From positions 1 through 61,289 of the forward strand of contig SKLV01000004.1 in NCBI GenBank assembly GCA_007121385.1: a stretch of DNA of 61,289 nt, given 5' to 3'. Origin of the DNA: Bdellovibrionales bacterium. GTDB taxonomy: Bacteria; Bdellovibrionota; Bdellovibrionia; Bdellovibrionales; UBA1609. The notes under the pieces were generated by a model, which searched no databases, was not told where the DNA came from, and saw only the letters and a list, made by a program, of their open reading frames with translations. Made by a program: the position numbers and the translations under genes. Below, piece by piece: positions 46,677-57,354 of this stretch. Every line of letters starts with the position of its first letter. Within the stretch, counting starts at the first letter, position 1.

Positions 46677-47795
46677 ATGCTTGCTCTGGACTCTCAATTT
46701 CTGGTGGAAGGGGCCCTCTTGACCGAGCCAGGAGGGGGTCTTCGCTTGGGACTGGGGCCTTTGGGGCGTTTTGCCTCTTTGGAGGAGGCTTTGAGCAAAG
46801 GCAGTCAGGCTGTCTTTTACGCTCCCGATTTTTTTCAAAGTGATCCTCTACCCTGGCTAGCCTTTACTGAAAGTCATCATTTGACCTTGAAGGAGTTGGA
46901 AGAGCAGCTTCTCCATTGGAGTGAAAGGGATTCTCTTCCCTCTGCGCAGGAGGAGTCTTGGCAGGAGCCTGATCTGGAGGTCTTTAAGGAGGATTTCTTT
47001 CAGGCTCAGGAGCTGTTTCGCCGGGGTTTGGCCAAAAAAGTAGTTCCCCTGGTCTTTGCCCAGCGCCCAGGCTCTGTGAGCCGCGATCAGAGAAAAAGGG
47101 CTCTCCTTCAGGCTCTGAGGTCCCTAAAGTATTTGAACTCCTCCAAAGGTTGGGGTCCATCCTCTTGGCTCTATGGATATTGGTCTGAATCGGAGGGCGA
47201 AGGCCTTTTGGGTCTGAGTCCTGAACTTTTATTCTGTCTTACAAAGCCGGGCGAGTTGCGCTCTCTGGCTTTGGCTGGAACAGGATCTCTCGATGGTCCA
47301 CCGCTTCTCTCAGACCCCAAACAGTTGGCTGAGCACAATTGGGTGGTGCAGGGACTTTGTGATCGCCTCGGAGGTCTGGGAGAGGTTAAAGTAGGGCCCA
47401 CTTTTGAGTGGGCTCTCTCTCATCTCAAGCATCTGCGCACGGATATGGAGGTGGGACTTTCCAAAGCGCCGGACTTTCTGGATCTGGTCAATAGGCTACA
47501 CCCCACAGCCGCCTTGGGAAGTTATCCTCTAGAGGCTTTACCCCTTTGGATTGAGAGAGCCTCCGACTCCAATCGAAGCCGTGGTCGCTTTGGCGCACCC
47601 TTTGGCTTTTATCAGAAGCCTGAGGTGGGGCCATCTTGGGCCGTGGTGGCCATTCGCAATCTTCAATGGTCACAGGGCCAGACCCTTTTAGGTAGCGGCT
47701 GTGGCCTAGTGGCACAAAGCCAATTGCTGGATGAATGGAATGAGTTGAACTTAAAGCGTTCGGCGGTGAGAAAAATATTTTTTGGGAGGAGCTGA
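46677..47795 (+). CDS. menF: isochorismate synthase
   Basis: LFCLTKPGELRSLALAGT; HPTAALGSYPLEALPLWIE; RGRFGAPFGFY; chorismate-binding enzyme adjacent to menD. Confidence 0.88.
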   Translation: MLALDSQFLVEGALLTEPGGGLRLGLGPLGRFASLEEALSKGSQAVFYAPDFFQSDPLPWLAFTESHHLTLKELEEQLLHWSERDSLPSAQEESWQEPDLEVFKEDFFQAQELFRRGLAKKVVPLVFAQRPGSVSRDQRKRALLQALRSLKYLNSSKGWGPSSWLYGYWSESEGEGLLGLSPELLFCLTKPGELRSLALAGTGSLDGPPLLSDPKQLAEHNWVVQGLCDRLGGLGEVKVGPTFEWALSHLKHLRTDMEVGLSKAPDFLDLVNRLHPTAALGSYPLEALPLWIERASDSNRSRGRFGAPFGFYQKPEVGPSWAVVAIRNLQWSQGQTLLGSGCGLVAQSQLLDEWNELNLKRSAVRKIFFGRS

Positions 47796-47801
47796 GCAGA
47801 G

Positions 47802-49457
47802 GTGGGCAATATTGAAGGAAGTCTTTGGCTTTTGCAGGCTCTTGCCAAAATGGGAGTGCGGGAGTTTTGCCTCTGTCCTGGGTCACGAAATGCCCCTTTA
47901 GTCGAGCTACTCTCTCGCTCCCAAGGTCTTAAGGTCTGGACTTTTTTTGAAGAGAGATCGGCCGGATTCTTTGCCTTGGGACGAGCCCAAGTGCGAGGCG
48001 GGCCTGTGGCTGTTGTCACCACCTCAGGGACGGCTGCGGCCGAATTGCTCCCGGCCTGCATAGAGGCTCACTATCTTGGAGTTCCCCTTCTGTGGGTGAC
48101 CGCAGACCGTCCTAAGAGCTATCGCCTTCAAGGGGCTCCCCAGAGCATTGAACAAGTGGGGCTGTTCTCTGCCTATGTGCAGTCCTGTTTGGACATCAGC
48201 TTTGCTGATGGGGAAGAGGTCTGCAAAAATGAGATTCGCAAACTCAGTCTCTGGGATCAAAAGGGCCCAGCGCAATTGAATTTATGTTTTGATGAGCCTT
48301 TGGTGAATGCTCCTATTCCAGAGTCCCAAGTCCTTGACTTCTCACCAGACCAGGAGGCTGCCTTCGGAGGCCGACCAAGGGGGCTAAAGAGCTTGGATTT
48401 GCCTTCGGTAAACTTTGTGGAGCAATTTGCCCGACAGAGCCGACAGCCTTTGGTGATTGTGGGGGGCTTGCCCCTCTGGGCCCGATCCCCAGTGGCCGAG
48501 CTCTTGAGCGCCCTCGGCGCCCCCTGCATCACGGAGGCCCCCTCGGGTCTGCGCCAAGGGCCTCAATCCTTGGCGGGTTTGCGTTGGTTGAGTGATGATT
48601 TTGTTTTGCGTGAGGCCATAAGGTCGCAAGAAGTAGATGGAATTTTGCGCCTCGGTGGGGTCCCCTCCCTGCGTCTGTGGCGCGACTTGGAATACGAGTT
48701 GAGAGATCTTCCTGTCCTGTCTCTGGCTTGGCCCCCCTTTTCTGGTCTCAGTGAGGGGCGTGCCAAGACGTTGGATTTAGAGTCTATTCTCGCTGAGCCC
48801 AGTCAGATCTTAAAATTTCTGACTCCTTGGTCCATCAGCGCAATAGAGAGGCTTAGGGAAAGAGATCAGCGGCGTCGCCAGCAGATGGACTCAATGCTCG
48901 CCACCGAGCCTCTCTCCGAGTGGGCTTGGGTTCGCCATTTTTCAGGGGTCATTGGGGATCACTCTCAGGTCTTTTTGGGCAACAGTTTGCCCATTCGGGA
49001 ATGGGACCTCTGGGCGGTGCAGGAGGAAAAGAACTGGCGGATTCATGCCAACCGAGGGGCCAATGGAATCGATGGACTCGTCTCCACCTTTTTAGGTCTA
49101 GTGAGGGGGGGCGAGGAGCAGAACTGGGCCCTTTTAGGGGACCTCAGCGCTCTCTATGACTTGGCCGGATTGTGGCCCCTTGCCCAAGTGGAGAAAGAGT
49201 GGGGCGTCCCGGTTCAGCTCGTGGTGGTCAACAATGGTGGGGGGCAAATTTTTCGCTCCCTCTATCAAAACCCCATCTATCAAAATAGCCATCAGCTGGA
49301 TTTTAGCCATTGGGCCAAGATGTGGGGTCTTGGCTACCGCCGGGTGCAGAAGCCGGAGGACCTAAAGCCCCTTGACTCTGGGTCCATGATCTTTGAAGTT
49401 TGTCCTGACAATCAGGCGACTCAGCGCCTGGAACAGGCTTTAAAGAGAGGACTATGA
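47802..49457 (+). CDS. menD: SEPHCHC synthase
   Basis: CPGSRNAPLVELL; ERSAGFFALGRAQ; NRGANGIDGLVSTFLGL; VVVNNGGGQIF. Confidence 0.93.
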   Translation: MGNIEGSLWLLQALAKMGVREFCLCPGSRNAPLVELLSRSQGLKVWTFFEERSAGFFALGRAQVRGGPVAVVTTSGTAAAELLPACIEAHYLGVPLLWVTADRPKSYRLQGAPQSIEQVGLFSAYVQSCLDISFADGEEVCKNEIRKLSLWDQKGPAQLNLCFDEPLVNAPIPESQVLDFSPDQEAAFGGRPRGLKSLDLPSVNFVEQFARQSRQPLVIVGGLPLWARSPVAELLSALGAPCITEAPSGLRQGPQSLAGLRWLSDDFVLREAIRSQEVDGILRLGGVPSLRLWRDLEYELRDLPVLSLAWPPFSGLSEGRAKTLDLESILAEPSQILKFLTPWSISAIERLRERDQRRRQQMDSMLATEPLSEWAWVRHFSGVIGDHSQVFLGNSLPIREWDLWAVQEEKNWRIHANRGANGIDGLVSTFLGLVRGGEEQNWALLGDLSALYDLAGLWPLAQVEKEWGVPVQLVVVNNGGGQIFRSLYQNPIYQNSHQLDFSHWAKMWGLGYRRVQKPEDLKPLDSGSMIFEVCPDNQATQRLEQALKRGL

Positions 49458-50215
49458 TTCAGCTTATTGCCCTGCATGGATTTCTCAACCGCGGAGATCT
49501 TTTTGATCAAACTCTGGGCCACTGGGCCGCGGACCATCCAGAATTGGAGTTCAGCGCCTGGGCGCCCGATCTCTTTTCCCCAGACAGCCCTCTGTCTGCA
49601 GACTTGACCATGTCTGAATGGGCCGAGCGCTTTTGCGAGCTGGTGGAAGTGCACACTCATCCCGAGGAGCCCCGGGTGATCATGGGCTACTCAATGGGGG
49701 GGCGTTTGGCCATGCAGGTGCTCTTGGCTTACCCTCAGCTCTGGTCAGCAGGAGTACTCATTTCCGCCCATCCTGGGGAAGAGGACAATGCTCAACGCCA
49801 GGAATGGCGTGAGTCATGGATGGATCGATTTTCTTCCGAGGAGAACTTTTCCCAAGTTGTGAATGAGTGGCAAAGTCAGGAGCTTCTCGCTTCTTCTCCG
49901 GGAAAAAAGTATAAGGTGAGGGAGGAGGACTTTGATCGGGAGGCCTTGGCTTTGGCCCTGGCAAGGTGGGACCGAACCCAACATCTCTTTTCCCTTGAGG
50001 AGGTGGAGGACATAGGCCGTCCTCTGCTGTGGTGTTGGGGCCAACAAGATGGTGTTTACTCTCAACTCTACCGTCAGCTCAAGGAGCAGGGAATCCCAGG
50101 GCAGTGGACGGAGGTTCCAGGGGCGGGGCACCGGGTGCCCGTGGATGCCCCACGGGAACTGGCTTCGGCTATGGTCAAATTTTTACAGTCCATAGGACTG
50201 GGAGGTCAAAAGTGA
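49454..50215 (+). CDS. menH: SHCHC synthase-like alpha/beta hydrolase
   Basis: LHGFLNRGDLFDQ; MGYSMGGRLAMQVLL; GAGHRVPVDAP; ATGA overlap with menD. Confidence 0.85.
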   Translation: MIQLIALHGFLNRGDLFDQTLGHWAADHPELEFSAWAPDLFSPDSPLSADLTMSEWAERFCELVEVHTHPEEPRVIMGYSMGGRLAMQVLLAYPQLWSAGVLISAHPGEEDNAQRQEWRESWMDRFSSEENFSQVVNEWQSQELLASSPGKKYKVREEDFDREALALALARWDRTQHLFSLEEVEDIGRPLLWCWGQQDGVYSQLYRQLKEQGIPGQWTEVPGAGHRVPVDAPRELASAMVKFLQSIGLGGQK

Positions 50216-50427
50216 GTGAAGTGAAGCTTTCAGATGGTGGACAATTTATGGAGCTTAAAACGACTGACAATCAATTGGTTCAGATTCGGCGTTCGGCTGT
50301 AGGAGCTGTGGAAGAAGTTCCGGGCACCAGTCGGTCTGGGGGCCATTTGCGAGTCTATGTGGGAGGCTATCGCTTCTCCATAGAGGCCAAGGTTGAAGAT
50401 GTGATGGAAAAGTTAAAGGAGAGTTAA
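50212..50427 (+). CDS. conserved-looking 71-aa hypothetical protein inside the men operon
   Basis: GTG at 50212 overlapping the menH stop (GTGA): MSEVKLSDGGQFMELKTTDNQLVQIRRSAVGAVEEVPGTSRSGGHLRVYVGGYRFSIEAKVEDVMEKLKES. Confidence 0.7.
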   Translation: MSEVKLSDGGQFMELKTTDNQLVQIRRSAVGAVEEVPGTSRSGGHLRVYVGGYRFSIEAKVEDVMEKLKES

Positions 50428-50430
50428 AAT

Positions 50431-51297
50431 ATGCAATTAGACAAAGAAAGAGAGGGTGGACCGAAGGGGACCTCTGATCCCGTGGTTTGGATGCCGGTCA
50501 AAAAGTTTCAAGACATACGGCTCGAGCGCTCTCAGGACGGAATTGCAAAGATCACTATCAATCGCCCTGAGGTCCGCAATGCTTTTCGCCCGCAAACCGT
50601 TCTTGAACTGCAGGAGGCTTTTTATTGGGTCCGGGAGGAACCGGAGATTGGCGTGGTGATTCTCACTGGAGAGGGCAAAGAGGCCTTTTGCGCCGGAGGT
50701 GATCAGAAAGTCCGTGGTCATGCGGGTTATGTTGGAAAAGATGGAGTGCCGCGATTAAATATTTTGGATGTGCAAAAGCAGATTCGCTCCCTTCCCAAGC
50801 CTGTCGTAGCCATGGTGGCTGGTTATGCCATTGGCGGCGGTCATGTTCTCCATGTGGTCTGTGATTTGACCATCGCAGCCGACAATGCCCGCTTTGGACA
50901 AACAGGTCCAAAAGTGGGCTCTTTTGATGGAGGCCTCGGATCTAGCTACCTGGCCCGGATTGTGGGGCAAAAGAAAGCTCGGGAAATTTGGTATCTTTGC
51001 CGGCAGTACTCCGCCGCAGAAGCTTTAGAGATGGGCTTGGTGAATAAAGTGGTCCCCTATGAGCAGCTGGAAAAAGAGACTGTGGCTTGGTGTCGAGAGA
51101 TCCTGGGGCATTCACCCTTGGCTCTTCGCTGCCTTAAAGCGGCTCTCAATGCCGACTGTGATGGTCAGATGGGTTTGCTGGACTTAGCGGGTAACGCCAC
51201 TCTGCTCTACTATATGTCTGAGGAAGCCAAGGAAGGTAAAAACGCTTTTGTCGAGAAGCGAGAGCCGGATTTTAGCCAGTTTCCACGCCTACCCTGA
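50431..51297 (+). CDS. menB: 1,4-dihydroxy-2-naphthoyl-CoA synthase
   Basis: Crotonase fold; [56 protein letters not shown]. Confidence 0.95.
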
Positions 51298-51310
51298 GGA
51301 GAGATATCGA

Positions 51311-52201
51311 ATGACTCATTGGTGGACCGCCTTTCGTCCCAAAACCTTGTCTGCAGCAGTGGTTCCCGTGGTGGTGGGGACGGCCCTGGTGCCCACTTTT
51401 GGAGGTGAGATCCTCTGGTGGGTCACTGGTCTGGCTTTATTCGCCGCCCTGATGATTCAGCTGGCCACCAACCTCTTCAATGATGTCATAGACTTCAAAA
51501 AAGGAGCTGATACAGAGGCGAGGCTGGGACCCACTCGGGTCACTCAGAGTGGGATGATTTCTGAGAAGGGAGTTTTTTGGGCCGCCATAGGTTTTTTACT
51601 TTTAGCCTTTCTCGCTGGAATCCCCCTAGTTCTACACGGGGGATGGCCTATTGTCGCAATAGGTTTGGTGTCCCTGTTTTTAGCTTATGCCTACACAGGA
51701 GGGCCATTCCCCTTGGCCTACCTTGGTTTGGGCGAGATCTTTGTGGTGCTTTTTTTCGGTCTTATTGCTGTGGGTGGAGTTTTTTACCTGCATACGCTCA
51801 GCTTTCATCCTGCGGCGGCAGTGGCCGGATTGCAGGTGGGCTTCTTGGCCACCGCTCTTTTGGTGATTAACAATATTCGTGATCGGGAACAGGACCTAAA
51901 AGCCCACAAAAAAACCTTGGCTGTTCGCTTTGGTCTGCGGTTTTCTCGTGTGGAGTTGCTGTTAATCTATCTGCTGAGCTTTGGTTTAGGAGCCTATTGG
52001 TTTATGCAGGGGCTTTGGCTTATGGCTTTTTTGCCCTTGGTGGTTTGGCCTCTGGTGCGCCAAGTGATCCACCAAGTTTTTTTCACTCAGCCGGGGGCTC
52101 ATTACAATGAGTTACTGGGAAAAGCAGCAGCCATTCATGTTCTGTTTGGAGTCCAGCTGGTTTTTGCCTTGGTGGTCAGCGGATTTTTACAGTGGCCTTA
52201 G
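51311..52201 (+). CDS. menA: 1,4-dihydroxy-2-naphthoate polyprenyltransferase
   Basis: AFRPKTLSAAVVPVVVGTALV; NLFNDVIDFKKGADTEARLGPTR; NNIRDREQDLKAHKKTLAVRFG. ATG at 51311. Confidence 0.93.
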   Translation: MTHWWTAFRPKTLSAAVVPVVVGTALVPTFGGEILWWVTGLALFAALMIQLATNLFNDVIDFKKGADTEARLGPTRVTQSGMISEKGVFWAAIGFLLLAFLAGIPLVLHGGWPIVAIGLVSLFLAYAYTGGPFPLAYLGLGEIFVVLFFGLIAVGGVFYLHTLSFHPAAAVAGLQVGFLATALLVINNIRDREQDLKAHKKTLAVRFGLRFSRVELLLIYLLSFGLGAYWFMQGLWLMAFLPLVVWPLVRQVIHQVFFTQPGAHYNELLGKAAAIHVLFGVQLVFALVVSGFLQWP

Positions 52202-53184
52202 TGAGGTTAAAAGGAGTCGGCCTGAGCCCCTATGAACTGAAGCGGGTGGATCAGAGAGGGGTGGTGTCGGGAACTCTGCTTCGCTGCGAGTTTTCCTCTG
52301 AAGACCAAAAAGCATCCTCCTTGGTGGGCTACTCCTGTTTGCAAACTTGGCCTTCGCTGGGAGAGCCTCGCTGGGAGGGCCTGATTCCTCTATTGAAATT
52401 AGGTGAGGAGGCCCACCGCCAGTCCCTCTTGCTTCAGCGGTGTTTGGAGATGGCCGCTGAGGACGCTCAAGCCAGAGGCCAGGGGCGAGCTCTTTTGGGC
52501 GAGACAGTGGAGTTGCCCTCAAGTCACGCGTTGATCTGGTGGCCGGAACCGGGAGAAAAGAGCTCCCAGCTCTCGGCCGACTGGCTTAGGCAAAAAGTCA
52601 CTTATGATTTTTTTAAGCTTAAGATATCGGCCCAGCAGGTGCAGACAGAGCCAGGAGCTCTCAAGAATTTTGTGGAGTCCCTGGGGCCAGAGCATAGGCT
52701 TCGCTTGGACTTTAATTCCAGTTTTAGATCCTCTGGGGAGTTTTTGACCTGGTGGAGGGGAGTGGAAGATTGGCTAAGGCCCTTTGTGGACTTTATGGAG
52801 GACCCTGTGGACAGTGGGAGCCTTCAGGAGTGGCAAGAGCTAGAGCAAGCGGCTCCGGTGGCCGCTGATCGGCAGTCAGAGCCAGAGGTTTTGCAAGCTG
52901 CCAGCATCAGGATTTGGAAGCCTCTGGTTCATCGTGAGCCCCAGTCTCCGCGAGTGGTCACTACCACCAATTTAGATCACCCCTTGGGGCAGGCCTATGC
53001 CGCTTTTAAATCCATAAAGAGACCTCCGGAGACTTGTGGCCTTCAGACGGCCCATGTCTACGAGCGAGACGCCTTCTCCGAGAGTATAAGCTACGATGGG
53101 CCTCGTATGAGGTTTTGCTCTGAAGGCTTAGGTTTTGGATTTACTCCTCAGTTGGAGTCTTTAGATTGGATCAGTCTGGATTAA
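52192..53184 (+). CDS. menC: o-succinylbenzoate synthase
   Basis: Enolase-superfamily pattern (FFKLKIS, RLRLDFNSSF, FMEDPVD, VAADRQ) between menA and menE. GTG start at 52192 or 52201. Confidence 0.8.
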   Translation: MALVRLKGVGLSPYELKRVDQRGVVSGTLLRCEFSSEDQKASSLVGYSCLQTWPSLGEPRWEGLIPLLKLGEEAHRQSLLLQRCLEMAAEDAQARGQGRALLGETVELPSSHALIWWPEPGEKSSQLSADWLRQKVTYDFFKLKISAQQVQTEPGALKNFVESLGPEHRLRLDFNSSFRSSGEFLTWWRGVEDWLRPFVDFMEDPVDSGSLQEWQELEQAAPVAADRQSEPEVLQAASIRIWKPLVHREPQSPRVVTTTNLDHPLGQAYAAFKSIKRPPETCGLQTAHVYERDAFSESISYDGPRMRFCSEGLGFGFTPQLESLDWISLD

Positions 53185-54371
53185 TGATGAGCTTTTTAGG
53201 ATCAACCACTGAGGCTCTTAATATTGATTGGGATCAAGAGAGGGCCAGTCATCTTTTGTTGAATGATCGTTGGCCTCAGTCTGTGCGAGAGGGCTTAACG
53301 AAGTGGACCCAACAGGTCAGGCAGGAGTGGCCGGGGCTCATATGGTTGGCCACCTCGGGGACAACTGGCCGAAGTGGATATCGATTGGTGGGCTTGTCCC
53401 GCCAAGCTCTTTTGAGCTCAGCGCTGGCAGTGAATCGACATTTGCAGGTTCTCCAATCGGATCACTGGTTTTGTCCTCTTCCTCTTTTTCATGTAGGTGG
53501 TTTGGCCATTTTGGCCCGGTCTTTTCAAGCTGGACTGGCAGCTCCAGCCATCTGGAACGAAGCCTGGGACCCACAAGAATTTTGTTTGGCCCTTGGCGAC
53601 AGTCGGGCCACTTTAGCCTCTCTGGTTCCCACTCAAGTCTATGACTTAGTATCAAAGGGGCTTAAAGCGCCTTCTGTACTCAGGGCTCTTGTGGTGGGGG
53701 GAGGAGCCCTAAGTCCATTCCTGTACCAGAGAGCTAGGGAACTCAACTGGCCTCTTTTGCCCAGCTACGGGATGACGGAGTGCTCGTCGCAAGTGGCAAC
53801 AGCCTTATTGAGCTCCTTGGATCGGCCTGCTCAAGATTTTGCGGAGGATTTGCCTGAGCTGAGAAGGCTGGAGCACATTCAGTGGGCCACTGATGTAGGC
53901 TCTCAAGTATTACGAATTAAGAGCCCATCTCTTCTTACAGCCGTGATTGAGGTGGATTTACGGAATCCGGGAGCTTTTGCCTATGACCCTAAGCAAGAGG
54001 GATGGTTTCAAACTGAAGATATTGTGAGCTTAGAAGGCGAGAACTCCCTGCGCTTTATAGGTCGGGTGGGGGAGACTCTTAAAGTGAGCGGAGAGTTGGT
54101 CAATTTGCATTTCCTCAATTCTCGACTCCAAGAAATGATTATGGAGAGGGACCCTTCTCGGATTCAGAGTCTAGTGGTGGTGGCCAGAGCCTGCCCCCGT
54201 CGTGGTCATAATATGATCTTACTTGCTGAGAAAGATGTGCCTCTCCAGTGGGTGGAAGATCTTCGGCAGACTTACGATCAGTCTGTTTTCCCCTACGAGA
54301 GGATGACTGCTGTGGAGTGGGTGGATAAAATCCCTCGCAACTCCATGGGTAAAGTCCAATGGGGCCGGTAA
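53184..54371 (+). CDS. menE: o-succinylbenzoate-CoA ligase
   Basis: IWLATSGTTGRSGYRLVGLS; LPSYGMTECSSQVA; GWFQTEDIVS; IPRNSMGKVQ. TAATG overlap with menC. Confidence 0.9.
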   Translation: MMSFLGSTTEALNIDWDQERASHLLLNDRWPQSVREGLTKWTQQVRQEWPGLIWLATSGTTGRSGYRLVGLSRQALLSSALAVNRHLQVLQSDHWFCPLPLFHVGGLAILARSFQAGLAAPAIWNEAWDPQEFCLALGDSRATLASLVPTQVYDLVSKGLKAPSVLRALVVGGGALSPFLYQRARELNWPLLPSYGMTECSSQVATALLSSLDRPAQDFAEDLPELRRLEHIQWATDVGSQVLRIKSPSLLTAVIEVDLRNPGAFAYDPKQEGWFQTEDIVSLEGENSLRFIGRVGETLKVSGELVNLHFLNSRLQEMIMERDPSRIQSLVVVARACPRRGHNMILLAEKDVPLQWVEDLRQTYDQSVFPYERMTAVEWVDKIPRNSMGKVQWGR

Positions 54372-54387: not shown

Positions 54388-56130
54388 TTAATGCCCAGAG
54401 TTGATTTGAGTTAAGTTTTTAAAGCTTGATCTTTCTAACATCTCGTAAAAATCTCGCCGTTGACCAACTGCCAGGATTTCAATTTCCCTCATATCTCTTT
54501 TAATATGATAGGCGATTCTCAATCGCAGTCCCTCTAGGTTCACTTTGTGACGACGGACCCGATGCTTTCTAAAAACATTATGGGCCAGTACACCATTGGT
54601 ATAGGGGCTTTGGGCAATCTGGGGGAAAATCTCATGGACCAATCGGTCAGCCACGGAGGCGTTGCCCAGGCTAGCTAAATTTTTTTGTACCTTCAAGGAA
54701 AGAGGAGCGAGAGAGTGGGGTCGGGAATAATTTGGAGTCGATGGGAGCGATGATTTCGGGGGAGAGTCTGGATGGGGGCTTTGAGTCTTTCTCTTGTTGG
54801 GGTTGGGTGCTGCCGGAGAACTGGATTTCTTAAGCCAGGCTTCTTCACCAGAGAGCCAAAGAGCCTTAGTGCGAGCGACTGGGGGTGAAGCCTTTTGAGC
54901 GGGCCTGACTATGGGAGATCGCAGTGACTGTATTTGTCTTCTCAATTCTGCAAGCTCCGACTTCATGGCTTTACGGAGGGAGTACTCCAGTTGACCACTT
55001 TGGAATTTATGCAGGACAAGACCTACTGAAACATAGTCAAAGAGTTCAAGGAGAATTGAGGAGACCCCTGATTTATAACCCATATTCTTTATACTTTTTT
55101 GAGCTAGGTCACGATCATAATCGAGAAAGCTAAGGGGCTCTGGGTGCATGCTGCTGAAGACAGCTTTTTCTACAAGAGGCAAAATTTCAATCAGCTGATA
55201 AAACAACATTTCTTTGATTGAGGCCACTTCAAAAGATTCAAATTTGTGTCTTAAAGAGATTAATTTTTTACTCGCTGAAGCATCGATTCCTCTAACGAGT
55301 TTGTCCAGCTCCGTGGGCTCCTGTTGGGCTTTGAAGTCCATGTAAACTTGCCGATACTCCAGTTGACTAGGGCCTCTTTCCAGGACAAAGAGGAGAAAGT
55401 CATTGATGGCTTTATCTCGCCGGGGCCAAAGGTACTCATCGATATACATTTTAAGATTAGTTATAAGAAATTGATCAAAGTCTTCATCTACATCCAGTCC
55501 ACTGTTAAGAAACTGGTGCTTGAAACGATCCTGGTGGTGCTGGGGGTGCATAGAAACAAGGGTTCTAGTCACAAATTCAGTAAAAAGGGGCCCATGTGGA
55601 AGGTTCGCAAATTCTTCCCGCTGGCTGAGTTGCCAGATCAGGGATCTGTACAGCTCTTGGGCCAGTTTCTTGGCCAGACGGGGAGGGGCTGAGCCCGATC
55701 CAAAAAGGGCAAGGGGATCCTCTGAGTCGGCCCCCGACCAATGGGAGAGTATGCTTCGAATTTCCTCAAAGTTGGCATCTGTAGGAGAGAGCAGAGAGAG
55801 ATTAAGCTGGCGGGTGAGCTGCTCAAACCAAAAGCGGCGAAGCTGAGTCTGTGTGGGGGAGGTCTTTTCTAGAAAGAGGGCCACCTCGCTGAGTTGATCG
55901 AAGGCCTCTACAAGGTCTTTAGCCTCTTCCAACTTGAGCAGCTCAGGCCGCGAAATCCCAAAAATTTCCTGAGCTCGAGCGGAAGAAAGGGAAAAAATCG
56001 GTTCCCCCTTCTCTAAGAGCGAGGAGCAGAGTTGGGGGAGTTGAGAAGGGGCCCCGGAGCCGGCAGCCACTCGCTCTGGAAAAGCTCCCAGGAAGACAAA
56101 TGGGAAGGTCAATAGCCAAAAATTTTTCAT
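54388..56130 (-). CDS. exported protein with Pro/Ser-rich linker and C-terminal RelE/ParE-like domain
   Basis: Signal peptide MKNFWLLTFPFVFLGAFPERVAAG; C-terminus SLKVQKNLASLGNASVADRLVHEIFPQIAQSPY..HKVNLEGLRLRIAYHIKRDMREIEILAVGQRRDFYEML. Listed ORF start (56538) is too far upstream; ATG 56130 preferred. Confidence 0.7.
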   Translation of the reverse strand: MKNFWLLTFPFVFLGAFPERVAAGSGAPSQLPQLCSSLLEKGEPIFSLSSARAQEIFGISRPELLKLEEAKDLVEAFDQLSEVALFLEKTSPTQTQLRRFWFEQLTRQLNLSLLSPTDANFEEIRSILSHWSGADSEDPLALFGSGSAPPRLAKKLAQELYRSLIWQLSQREEFANLPHGPLFTEFVTRTLVSMHPQHHQDRFKHQFLNSGLDVDEDFDQFLITNLKMYIDEYLWPRRDKAINDFLLFVLERGPSQLEYRQVYMDFKAQQEPTELDKLVRGIDASASKKLISLRHKFESFEVASIKEMLFYQLIEILPLVEKAVFSSMHPEPLSFLDYDRDLAQKSIKNMGYKSGVSSILLELFDYVSVGLVLHKFQSGQLEYSLRKAMKSELAELRRQIQSLRSPIVRPAQKASPPVARTKALWLSGEEAWLKKSSSPAAPNPNKRKTQSPHPDSPPKSSLPSTPNYSRPHSLAPLSLKVQKNLASLGNASVADRLVHEIFPQIAQSPYTNGVLAHNVFRKHRVRRHKVNLEGLRLRIAYHIKRDMREIEILAVGQRRDFYEMLERSSFKNLTQINSGH

Positions 56131-56226
56131 GGGAAAAAGAGGTCTAACGAGAAATACTGCGCAGCGCAATAAAGTTCTCCTAGGCGGGTAAAATTTTTGC
56201 TGATCCGGCTCATAGAATGGGCAAAA

Positions 56227-57354
56227 ATGAAGCCTATGAAAGCAAAACCAAGAGTTCAGGGGCTCCTTATTCGATTTTTTTTGGCTGTGGCCTGGATGGC
56301 GGCCTTGGGACTGAGGCCGAGTTCTCTGCAGGCCCACTCCTGGGTTGGGGTCTATAAGGACCAAGTGGACTCCGTGGTCGTCGTTCTCGGCCAGGGCGTT
56401 TGTGCAGGCTCCCTGGTGAGTGAAGACTTGGTCCTCACGGCATGGCATTGTGTCCCTTATCTGAGAACGGTTTTTGTCGTTTTGAGAAATCCAGAGGTTC
56501 GCCTGAGGGCGCAAGTGATTGATCGGGATCGTCGTCACGACTTAGCCCTTTTGCGTTTAGAGAAACCTGTGGAAGGAAGAAAGGTTTTGCGTCTGGCAGG
56601 AAGGAGTTCAGACTCTCAGGAGTCCTCGCTGCAGGAGGGCGACCCTGTGGCCACCATTGGCCACCCCCTGGCCATTTCTACCCGATGGCTAAGTGGTGTT
56701 CTTCTTGATGATCGAGCCTACCTGATCTCTGCGGGAATTGTTTCTAAGATCAATGAGAAGAATATTATCAGCGATCTATCGTTAAGCCCTGGAAACTCAG
56801 GGGGACCACTCTTGAATCAAAAAGGGGAGATGGTGGGAGTGGCCTCAGCTAAATTGGTTGGCCTAGCAGCTGGACAAATTGGCTATTTTACCCCAGTGGA
56901 GAAAGCGACTCCCTTAATGGAGAATTCGGAGAAGAAAGGTCCCTTGCCTTGGTGGTGGGCAGATAATAGTCAGAGGCTCTTTTTGACCCTGGTTTTAGAC
57001 CCCGTTCTTGATGAGTTGGGCCGGGACCTGAGTCATTGGGGTTTGGAATGGAGTCTTGCACTTCGAGATCGATGGCGCTGGTCCCTCGGGAGGACTCGTT
57101 GGGGGTCAAGTGAAAACATGTTGTATTGGCGAACTGGATATCTTCATCGTTTTTCTCGGCAGGGGATCGGGACCACAAGCTTAGATGTGAGTGTGGGTGA
57201 AAACTACTATCGGTTCTCTGCAGGACAAACTGGTCATGCCACTGCTTTGGCTTTGGGGCTTCAGTTGAGAACACTTAGGTTTGAGTGGGCTCGACTCTTT
57301 CACCCTGAAGTGGAGGGGAGCTCTTTCACTGTGGGCTTTGGAGTCGGGCGCTGA
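56227..57354 (+). CDS. exported trypsin-like serine protease with beta-strand-rich C-terminus
   Basis: LTAWHCV, RHDLALLRL, LSPGNSGGPLL triad; C-terminus with alternating aromatic/polar strands ending FTVGFGVGR. Confidence 0.85.
   Translation: MKPMKAKPRVQGLLIRFFLAVAWMAALGLRPSSLQAHSWVGVYKDQVDSVVVVLGQGVCAGSLVSEDLVLTAWHCVPYLRTVFVVLRNPEVRLRAQVIDRDRRHDLALLRLEKPVEGRKVLRLAGRSSDSQESSLQEGDPVATIGHPLAISTRWLSGVLLDDRAYLISAGIVSKINEKNIISDLSLSPGNSGGPLLNQKGEMVGVASAKLVGLAAGQIGYFTPVEKATPLMENSEKKGPLPWWWADNSQRLFLTLVLDPVLDELGRDLSHWGLEWSLALRDRWRWSLGRTRWGSSENMLYWRTGYLHRFSRQGIGTTSLDVSVGENYYRFSAGQTGHATALALGLQLRTLRFEWARLFHPEVEGSSFTVGFGVGR

What the first reader, a model, noticed from the sequence alone, without database searches (positions are those of the whole stretch)
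54388..56130. Exported protein carrying a RelE/ParE-like toxin fold at its C-terminus, with no adjacent antitoxin
The protein has an N-terminal signal peptide, about 400 aa of helical sequence, and a Pro/Ser-rich linker (PAAPNPNKRKTQSPHPDSPPKSSLPSTPNYSRPHSLAP). It ends in about 95 aa laid out like a RelE/ParE-family toxin: helices (VQKNLASLG..VADRLVHEIFPQIAQSPY), then LRLRIAYHIKRDMREIEILAVGQRRDFYEML. RelE/ParE toxins are normally about 90-aa cytoplasmic proteins paired with an antitoxin. A signal peptide, polymorphic-toxin-like layout and no antitoxin ORF next door suggest a secreted effector, for example against prey. Export and toxicity are inference.
Basis: partly seen in the sequence, partly recalled or inferred. 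Interest (0 to 1): 0.78.

Follow-up and report, generated by a model that had tools for sequence, protein, structure and literature searches.

The report
Exported protein ending in RelE-like nuclease
A Bdellovibrionales bacterium encodes a protein with an export signal whose tail is folded like RelE, an RNA-cutting toxin that normally stays inside the cell with an antidote, so it may be used on other cells or on foreign RNA; this is predicted, not shown.

Summary
Window 54388-56130 (-) encodes 580 aa: a Sec-type signal sequence (inferred from sequence; SignalP was not available), about 390 aa of helical sequence, a Pro/Ser-rich linker and a C-terminal domain of about 95 aa. That domain matches Pfam ParE-like_toxin PF15781 (E=6e-5, below the curated cut-off). 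It folds confidently as RelE (pLDDT 89), with RelE toxins as the best PDB matches. Two homologues in other Bdellovibrionales MAGs share the whole layout, including an invariant linker motif NPNKRK[NT]Q. All three keep the residues aligned with RelE's essential R61, R81 and Y87; PF15781 toxins have lost two of these. No antitoxin or immunity gene fits beside any of the three, whereas 72 of 74 sampled stand-alone PF15781 toxins have one immediately upstream. Secreted RelE domains (Tox-RelE) are already described, so this is a new variant of a known kind. The toxin domain is the most conserved part (49% against 24% for the N-terminal region), the reverse of a polymorphic toxin. The family is rare: 3 of 374 phylum genomes. 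Best reading: an exported RelE-type RNase acting on foreign cells or RNA. Export, nuclease activity, target and delivery are unproven.

The parts
54388..56130 (-). 580-aa protein: signal sequence, helical region, Pro/Ser-rich linker, RelE-like C-terminal domain
   Evidence: homologues L024 (30% identity) and L025
56062..56130 (-). signal sequence (residues 1-23), MKNFWLLTFPFVFLGAFPERVAA, likely cleaved after VAA
   Evidence: most hydrophobic 12-residue stretch of the protein lies here, in all three homologues; SignalP not available
54901..56061 (-). helical region, residues 24-410, no known family; the protein's only Cys (C35) lies just after the signal sequence, as in both homologues
   Evidence: 24% and 18% identity to homologues
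54712..54900 (-). Pro/Ser-rich linker, residues 411-473
54781..54804 (-). NPNKRKTQ motif in the linker (residues 443-450), invariant as NPNKRK[NT]Q in three homologues
   Evidence: only 3 of 142 order genomes carry the DNA pattern, always in this gene
54421..54711 (-). RelE-like domain, residues 474-570
54523..54525 (-). R536, aligned with RelE R61
   Evidence: invariant
54457..54459 (-). R558, aligned with RelE R81 (general acid)
   Evidence: invariant
54445..54447 (-). Y562, aligned with RelE Y87
   Evidence: invariant
56197..57354 (+). divergently transcribed exported trypsin-like serine protease with a conserved C-terminal extension; same divergent pair in the sister species

Best explanation
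The gene encodes a Sec-exported protein whose C-terminal domain is a RelE-type metal-independent endoribonuclease. The signal sequence takes it out of the producer's cytoplasm, which would explain why no antitoxin is needed. The helical N-terminal region probably anchors, oligomerises or delivers it, and the flexible dibasic linker (NPNKRK) separates or releases the RNase domain. The likely target is RNA outside the producer: the ribosome or mRNA of a neighbouring or prey cell if the domain gets into that cytoplasm. Shown by computation: domain fold, conserved layout, RelE-type active-site residues, lack of antitoxin. Inferred: export, nuclease activity, target, delivery, role in antagonism.
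For: PF15781 match to all three homologues. RelE-fold model at pLDDT 88.7 with M. tuberculosis RelE1/RelE2, E. coli RelE and T. thermophilus RelE among the best PDB matches. R536, R558 and Y562 align with RelE R61, R81 and Y87 and are the same in all three species, with basic residues also at the K52 and K54 positions. R61, R81 and Y87 are the residues whose loss impairs RelE cleavage (PMC2807027; PMC12620021). PF15781 toxins in the same alignment have L/Q/K and H at the first two positions. The RelE-like domain is the most conserved part (49% against 24%), implying constraint. Signal sequence in all three. No antitoxin beside any of the three, but 72 of 74 sampled stand-alone relatives have one immediately upstream and the other two lie at contig ends.
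Against: No activity data. RelE acts on the ribosome, so an exported copy needs a route into another cytoplasm and none is identified. The N-terminal region matches no known delivery module. Only three genomes carry it, so it is not a general predation tool of the phylum. The structure model used an alignment in which 30 of 33 rows are PF15781 toxins, so it is not independent of that homology; without an alignment the protein did not fold (pLDDT 37).
Confidence: 0.5

Rival explanations
1. Exported digestive RNase: the domain degrades RNA from lysed or invaded cells in the periplasm or outside, for nutrients, without entering an intact cytoplasm.
For: Signal sequence; housekeeping neighbourhood without immunity gene; exported hydrolases next door: trypsin-like protease in two genomes and an alpha/beta hydrolase in L024.
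Against: The active site is of the E. coli RelE type (all basic plus Tyr), which in RelE depends on the ribosome (PMC2807027, PMC7180214). Digestive RNases usually carry His/Glu catalysts.
Confidence: 0.2
2. Retired toxin: a RelE-fold domain reused as a binding or structural module of a periplasmic envelope protein, with no catalysis.
For: Toxin domains are readily recruited; the long helical region and the single conserved Cys fit an envelope protein; no delivery system seen.
Against: All three positions essential in RelE are kept across 29-49% identity, which a purely structural role would not require.
Confidence: 0.18
3. Polymorphic toxin (Tox-RelE type) used against kin, with immunity encoded elsewhere.
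For: Layout signal - long region - linker - nuclease; Tox-RelE with general-secretory (T2SS) export is described in PMC3482391.
Against: No immunity gene beside any of the three copies, no RHS/HINT modules, and the C-terminal domain is conserved while the N-terminal region diverges.
Confidence: 0.06
4. Cytoplasmic orphan toxin: the N-terminal hydrophobic stretch is not a working signal and the protein acts in its own cell.
For: No SignalP result available; no Shine-Dalgarno-like sequence is evident before the ATG.
Against: Signal-like N-terminus kept in all three homologues although its sequence diverged; an active RelE without antitoxin would harm the producer.
Confidence: 0.06

Closest known systems
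Tox-RelE domain of polymorphic toxins (Zhang et al. 2012, PMC3482391)
   Same: RelE/BECR-fold domain at the C-terminus of an exported protein; active-site residues corresponding to RelE R61 and R81
   Different: Tox-RelE is listed with an immunity protein (Imm54), HINT peptidase and RHS repeats; none is seen here, and here the toxin domain is the conserved part. The paper's taxon list for Tox-RelE names no delta-proteobacteria, and the word Bdellovibrio does not occur in the held text
RelE family toxins (E. coli RelE, M. tuberculosis RelE1)
   Same: Fold (PDB matches with prob 1.00) and aligned R61, R81, Y87; basic residues at K52 and K54
   Different: RelE is a stand-alone ~95-aa cytoplasmic protein with a RelB antitoxin; here it is the tail of an exported 580-aa protein without antitoxin
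PF15781 ParE-like_toxin with PF11903 ParD_like antitoxin
   Same: Closest family by sequence, especially the C-terminal G-x-[RH]-x-x-FY-x-x-[LM]-x-[RK] segment
   Different: Below the Pfam cut-off; the PF15781 toxins compared have H at the R81 position, no R at the R61 position, and an adjacent antitoxin

Membership tests
RelE superfamily (fold) | beta-alpha-alpha-beta-beta-beta fold with C-terminal helix | tested here: met
   (model alignment rich in PF15781 sequences)
RelE superfamily (fold) | active-site R61, R81, Y87 (E. coli numbering) | tested here: met
   in all three homologues; by sequence alignment, not by 3D superposition
RelE superfamily (fold) | ribosome-dependent mRNA cleavage | not testable with these tools
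   needs biochemistry
PF15781 ParE-like_toxin | score above the curated cut-off (28 bits) | tested here: not met
   23.3 bits for the C-terminal 110 aa, 19.9 for the whole protein
Type II toxin-antitoxin system | adjacent antitoxin gene | tested here: not met
   none in the window, L024 or L025 by a ParD-like model; no room in the intergenic gaps; L025 contig ends 70 bp upstream of the gene
Polymorphic toxin / Tox-RelE | C-terminal RelE domain on an exported protein | tested here: met
   (export from sequence only)
Polymorphic toxin / Tox-RelE | variable C-terminal toxin behind a conserved N-terminal region | tested here: not met
   C-terminal domain 49% and helical region 24% identical between sister species
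Polymorphic toxin / Tox-RelE | downstream immunity gene | tested here: not met
   convergent genes 15-16 bp downstream in the window and L025; an exported alpha/beta hydrolase downstream in L024

The most novel reading that the evidence does not exclude
A RelE-type ribosome-directed RNase has become a fixed, antitoxin-free exported effector in Bdellovibrionales, aimed at the RNA or ribosomes of other bacteria and possibly released at the NPNKRK linker by the divergently encoded trypsin-like protease.
Probability: 0.3. Interest if true: 0.75.

Novelty: new variant of a known kind. Interest (0 to 1): 0.5.

Why it matters
RelE-family toxins are known mainly as intracellular, antitoxin-controlled RNases. 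A conserved exported version with an intact RelE active site and no partner would show how such a domain can be turned outward without an immunity gene, and would be a testable candidate effector in a lineage related to predatory bacteria.

Tried and rejected
Single-sequence structure prediction of the whole protein was useless (pLDDT 37). Sequence searches of PDB with the domain or its profile found no true relative. NCBIfam gave nothing and PADLOC only a weak Csm2 hit in the helical region, taken as coiled-coil noise. The weak second G007 match (L003, ScpB-like protein) was a helical coincidence. Weak full-length profile matches in other order genomes (E 0.02-0.35) cover only short parts of the profile and were not counted. 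No relatives in viral contigs, plasmids or phages. A functional link with the trypsin-like protease is only suggestive: G005 has a full-length relative of it without this gene beside it in the stretch read, and the upstream side of the G007 copy is lost at a contig end. Lipoprotein status was considered and rejected: the conserved Cys has no consistent lipobox.

Full report
What is there. The ORF at 54388-56130 on the minus strand encodes 580 aa. Residues 1-23 look like a Sec signal sequence. The genes around it in the contig look like housekeeping genes, with a menaquinone cluster on one side and TolQ/ExbD-like genes on the other (assigned by eye); the contig is not visibly a mobile element.

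Is the domain real? Pfam finds one family, PF15781 ParE-like_toxin, at E=6.4e-5 for the last 110 aa. That is below the curated cut-off and covers only the C-terminal half of the profile. The same family matches both homologues, and PHROG RelE-like toxin appears weakly for two of the three. A profile of the three domains against four stand-alone PF15781 toxins gives hhalign E=4e-5, probability 70%. An AF2 model of the window's domain, built with its two homologues and 30 stand-alone toxins from viral contigs, reaches mean pLDDT 88.7 with the RelE order of elements. The PDB hits are led by M. tuberculosis RelE1 (E=7e-5), PfiT and HigB2, followed by E. coli RelE on the ribosome (TM 0.65/0.69) and T. 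thermophilus RelE (TM 0.67/0.75). The alignment was dominated by PF15781, so the model confirms compatibility rather than proving the fold independently.

Relatives. Only two homologues were found: L024 (MAG Bdellovibrionales CSSed162cmB_279, same genus, 30% identity) and L025 (MAG Bdellovibrionales HKST-UBA10, same family, another genus). The domain profile finds the exported form in 3 of 47 family genomes, 3 of 142 order genomes and 3 of 374 phylum genomes; a fourth phylum hit is an ordinary stand-alone RelE-like toxin with a small ORF just upstream that looks like its antitoxin. All three proteins share signal sequence, a single Cys soon after it, helical region, linker with NPNKRK[NT]Q, and the RelE-like domain. 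The motif's DNA pattern occurs nowhere else in the 142 order genomes.

Active site. In an alignment with E. coli RelE, family RelE proteins and PF15781 toxins, the residues at RelE R61, R81 and Y87 are R, R and Y in all three exported proteins (R536, R558, Y562 in the window); K52 and K54 are replaced by basic residues. Mutation of R61, R81 or Y87 to alanine impairs RelE cleavage, with R81 the proposed general acid, R61 the transition-state stabiliser and Y87 the base; K52A and K54A had little effect (PMC2807027; also PMC12620021). The PF15781 toxins compared have L, L, Q or K at the R61 position and H at the R81 position. So the exported domain is nearest PF15781 by sequence but has the RelE type of active site. 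ParE toxins lack these residues (PMC7180214), so a gyrase-poison reading is less likely.

No antitoxin. Stand-alone PF15781 relatives in viral contigs have a ParD-like antitoxin immediately upstream in 72 of 74 cases; the other two lie at contig ends. The same model finds none in the window, L024 or L025, and there is no room for another gene. The window's genome has no PF05016 match and only a sub-threshold ParD-like one.

Pattern of conservation. Between the two sister species the RelE-like domain is 49% identical and the helical region 24%. Polymorphic toxins show the opposite. A fixed domain with an intact active site fits a fixed target such as RNA or the ribosome, and does not suggest coevolution with immunity proteins.

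Interpretation. Secreted RelE domains are not new: Tox-RelE, with [KR] and R at the R61 and R81 positions, is listed among polymorphic toxins exported by the general/T2SS route (PMC3482391). This family differs in lineage, in lacking immunity and processing modules, and in its conservation pattern. I therefore call it a new variant of a known kind. The most likely mechanism is an exported RelE-type RNase acting on other cells or on foreign RNA. The delivery route is unknown. The divergent trypsin-like protease is adjacent in two genomes whose other flanks differ, which makes a releasing role at the dibasic linker worth testing, but its near relative in G005 does not have this gene beside it.

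Noticed in passing
window 56197-57354 (+); L024 3831-5006 (-): Exported trypsin-like protease with a ~130-aa C-terminal extension that may be beta-rich, divergent from the RelE-like gene in two species whose other flanks differ; a 35% identical full-length relative is in G005 (L115).
   Followed up: partly
L024 6772-7632 (+): Exported alpha/beta hydrolase starting 4 bp after the RelE-like gene, possibly the same operon; not present at this place in the window.
   Followed up: partly
window 54781-54804 (-): Invariant NPNKRK[NT]Q motif inside an otherwise divergent linker; function unknown.
   Followed up: partly
P0001 C35; L024 protein C33; L025 protein C30: Each of the three proteins has exactly one Cys, just after the signal sequence; possibly an interchain disulfide.
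   Followed up: no
window 46677-54371 (+): Apparent menaquinone biosynthesis cluster (men genes) directly convergent with the RelE-like gene; assigned by eye.
   Followed up: no
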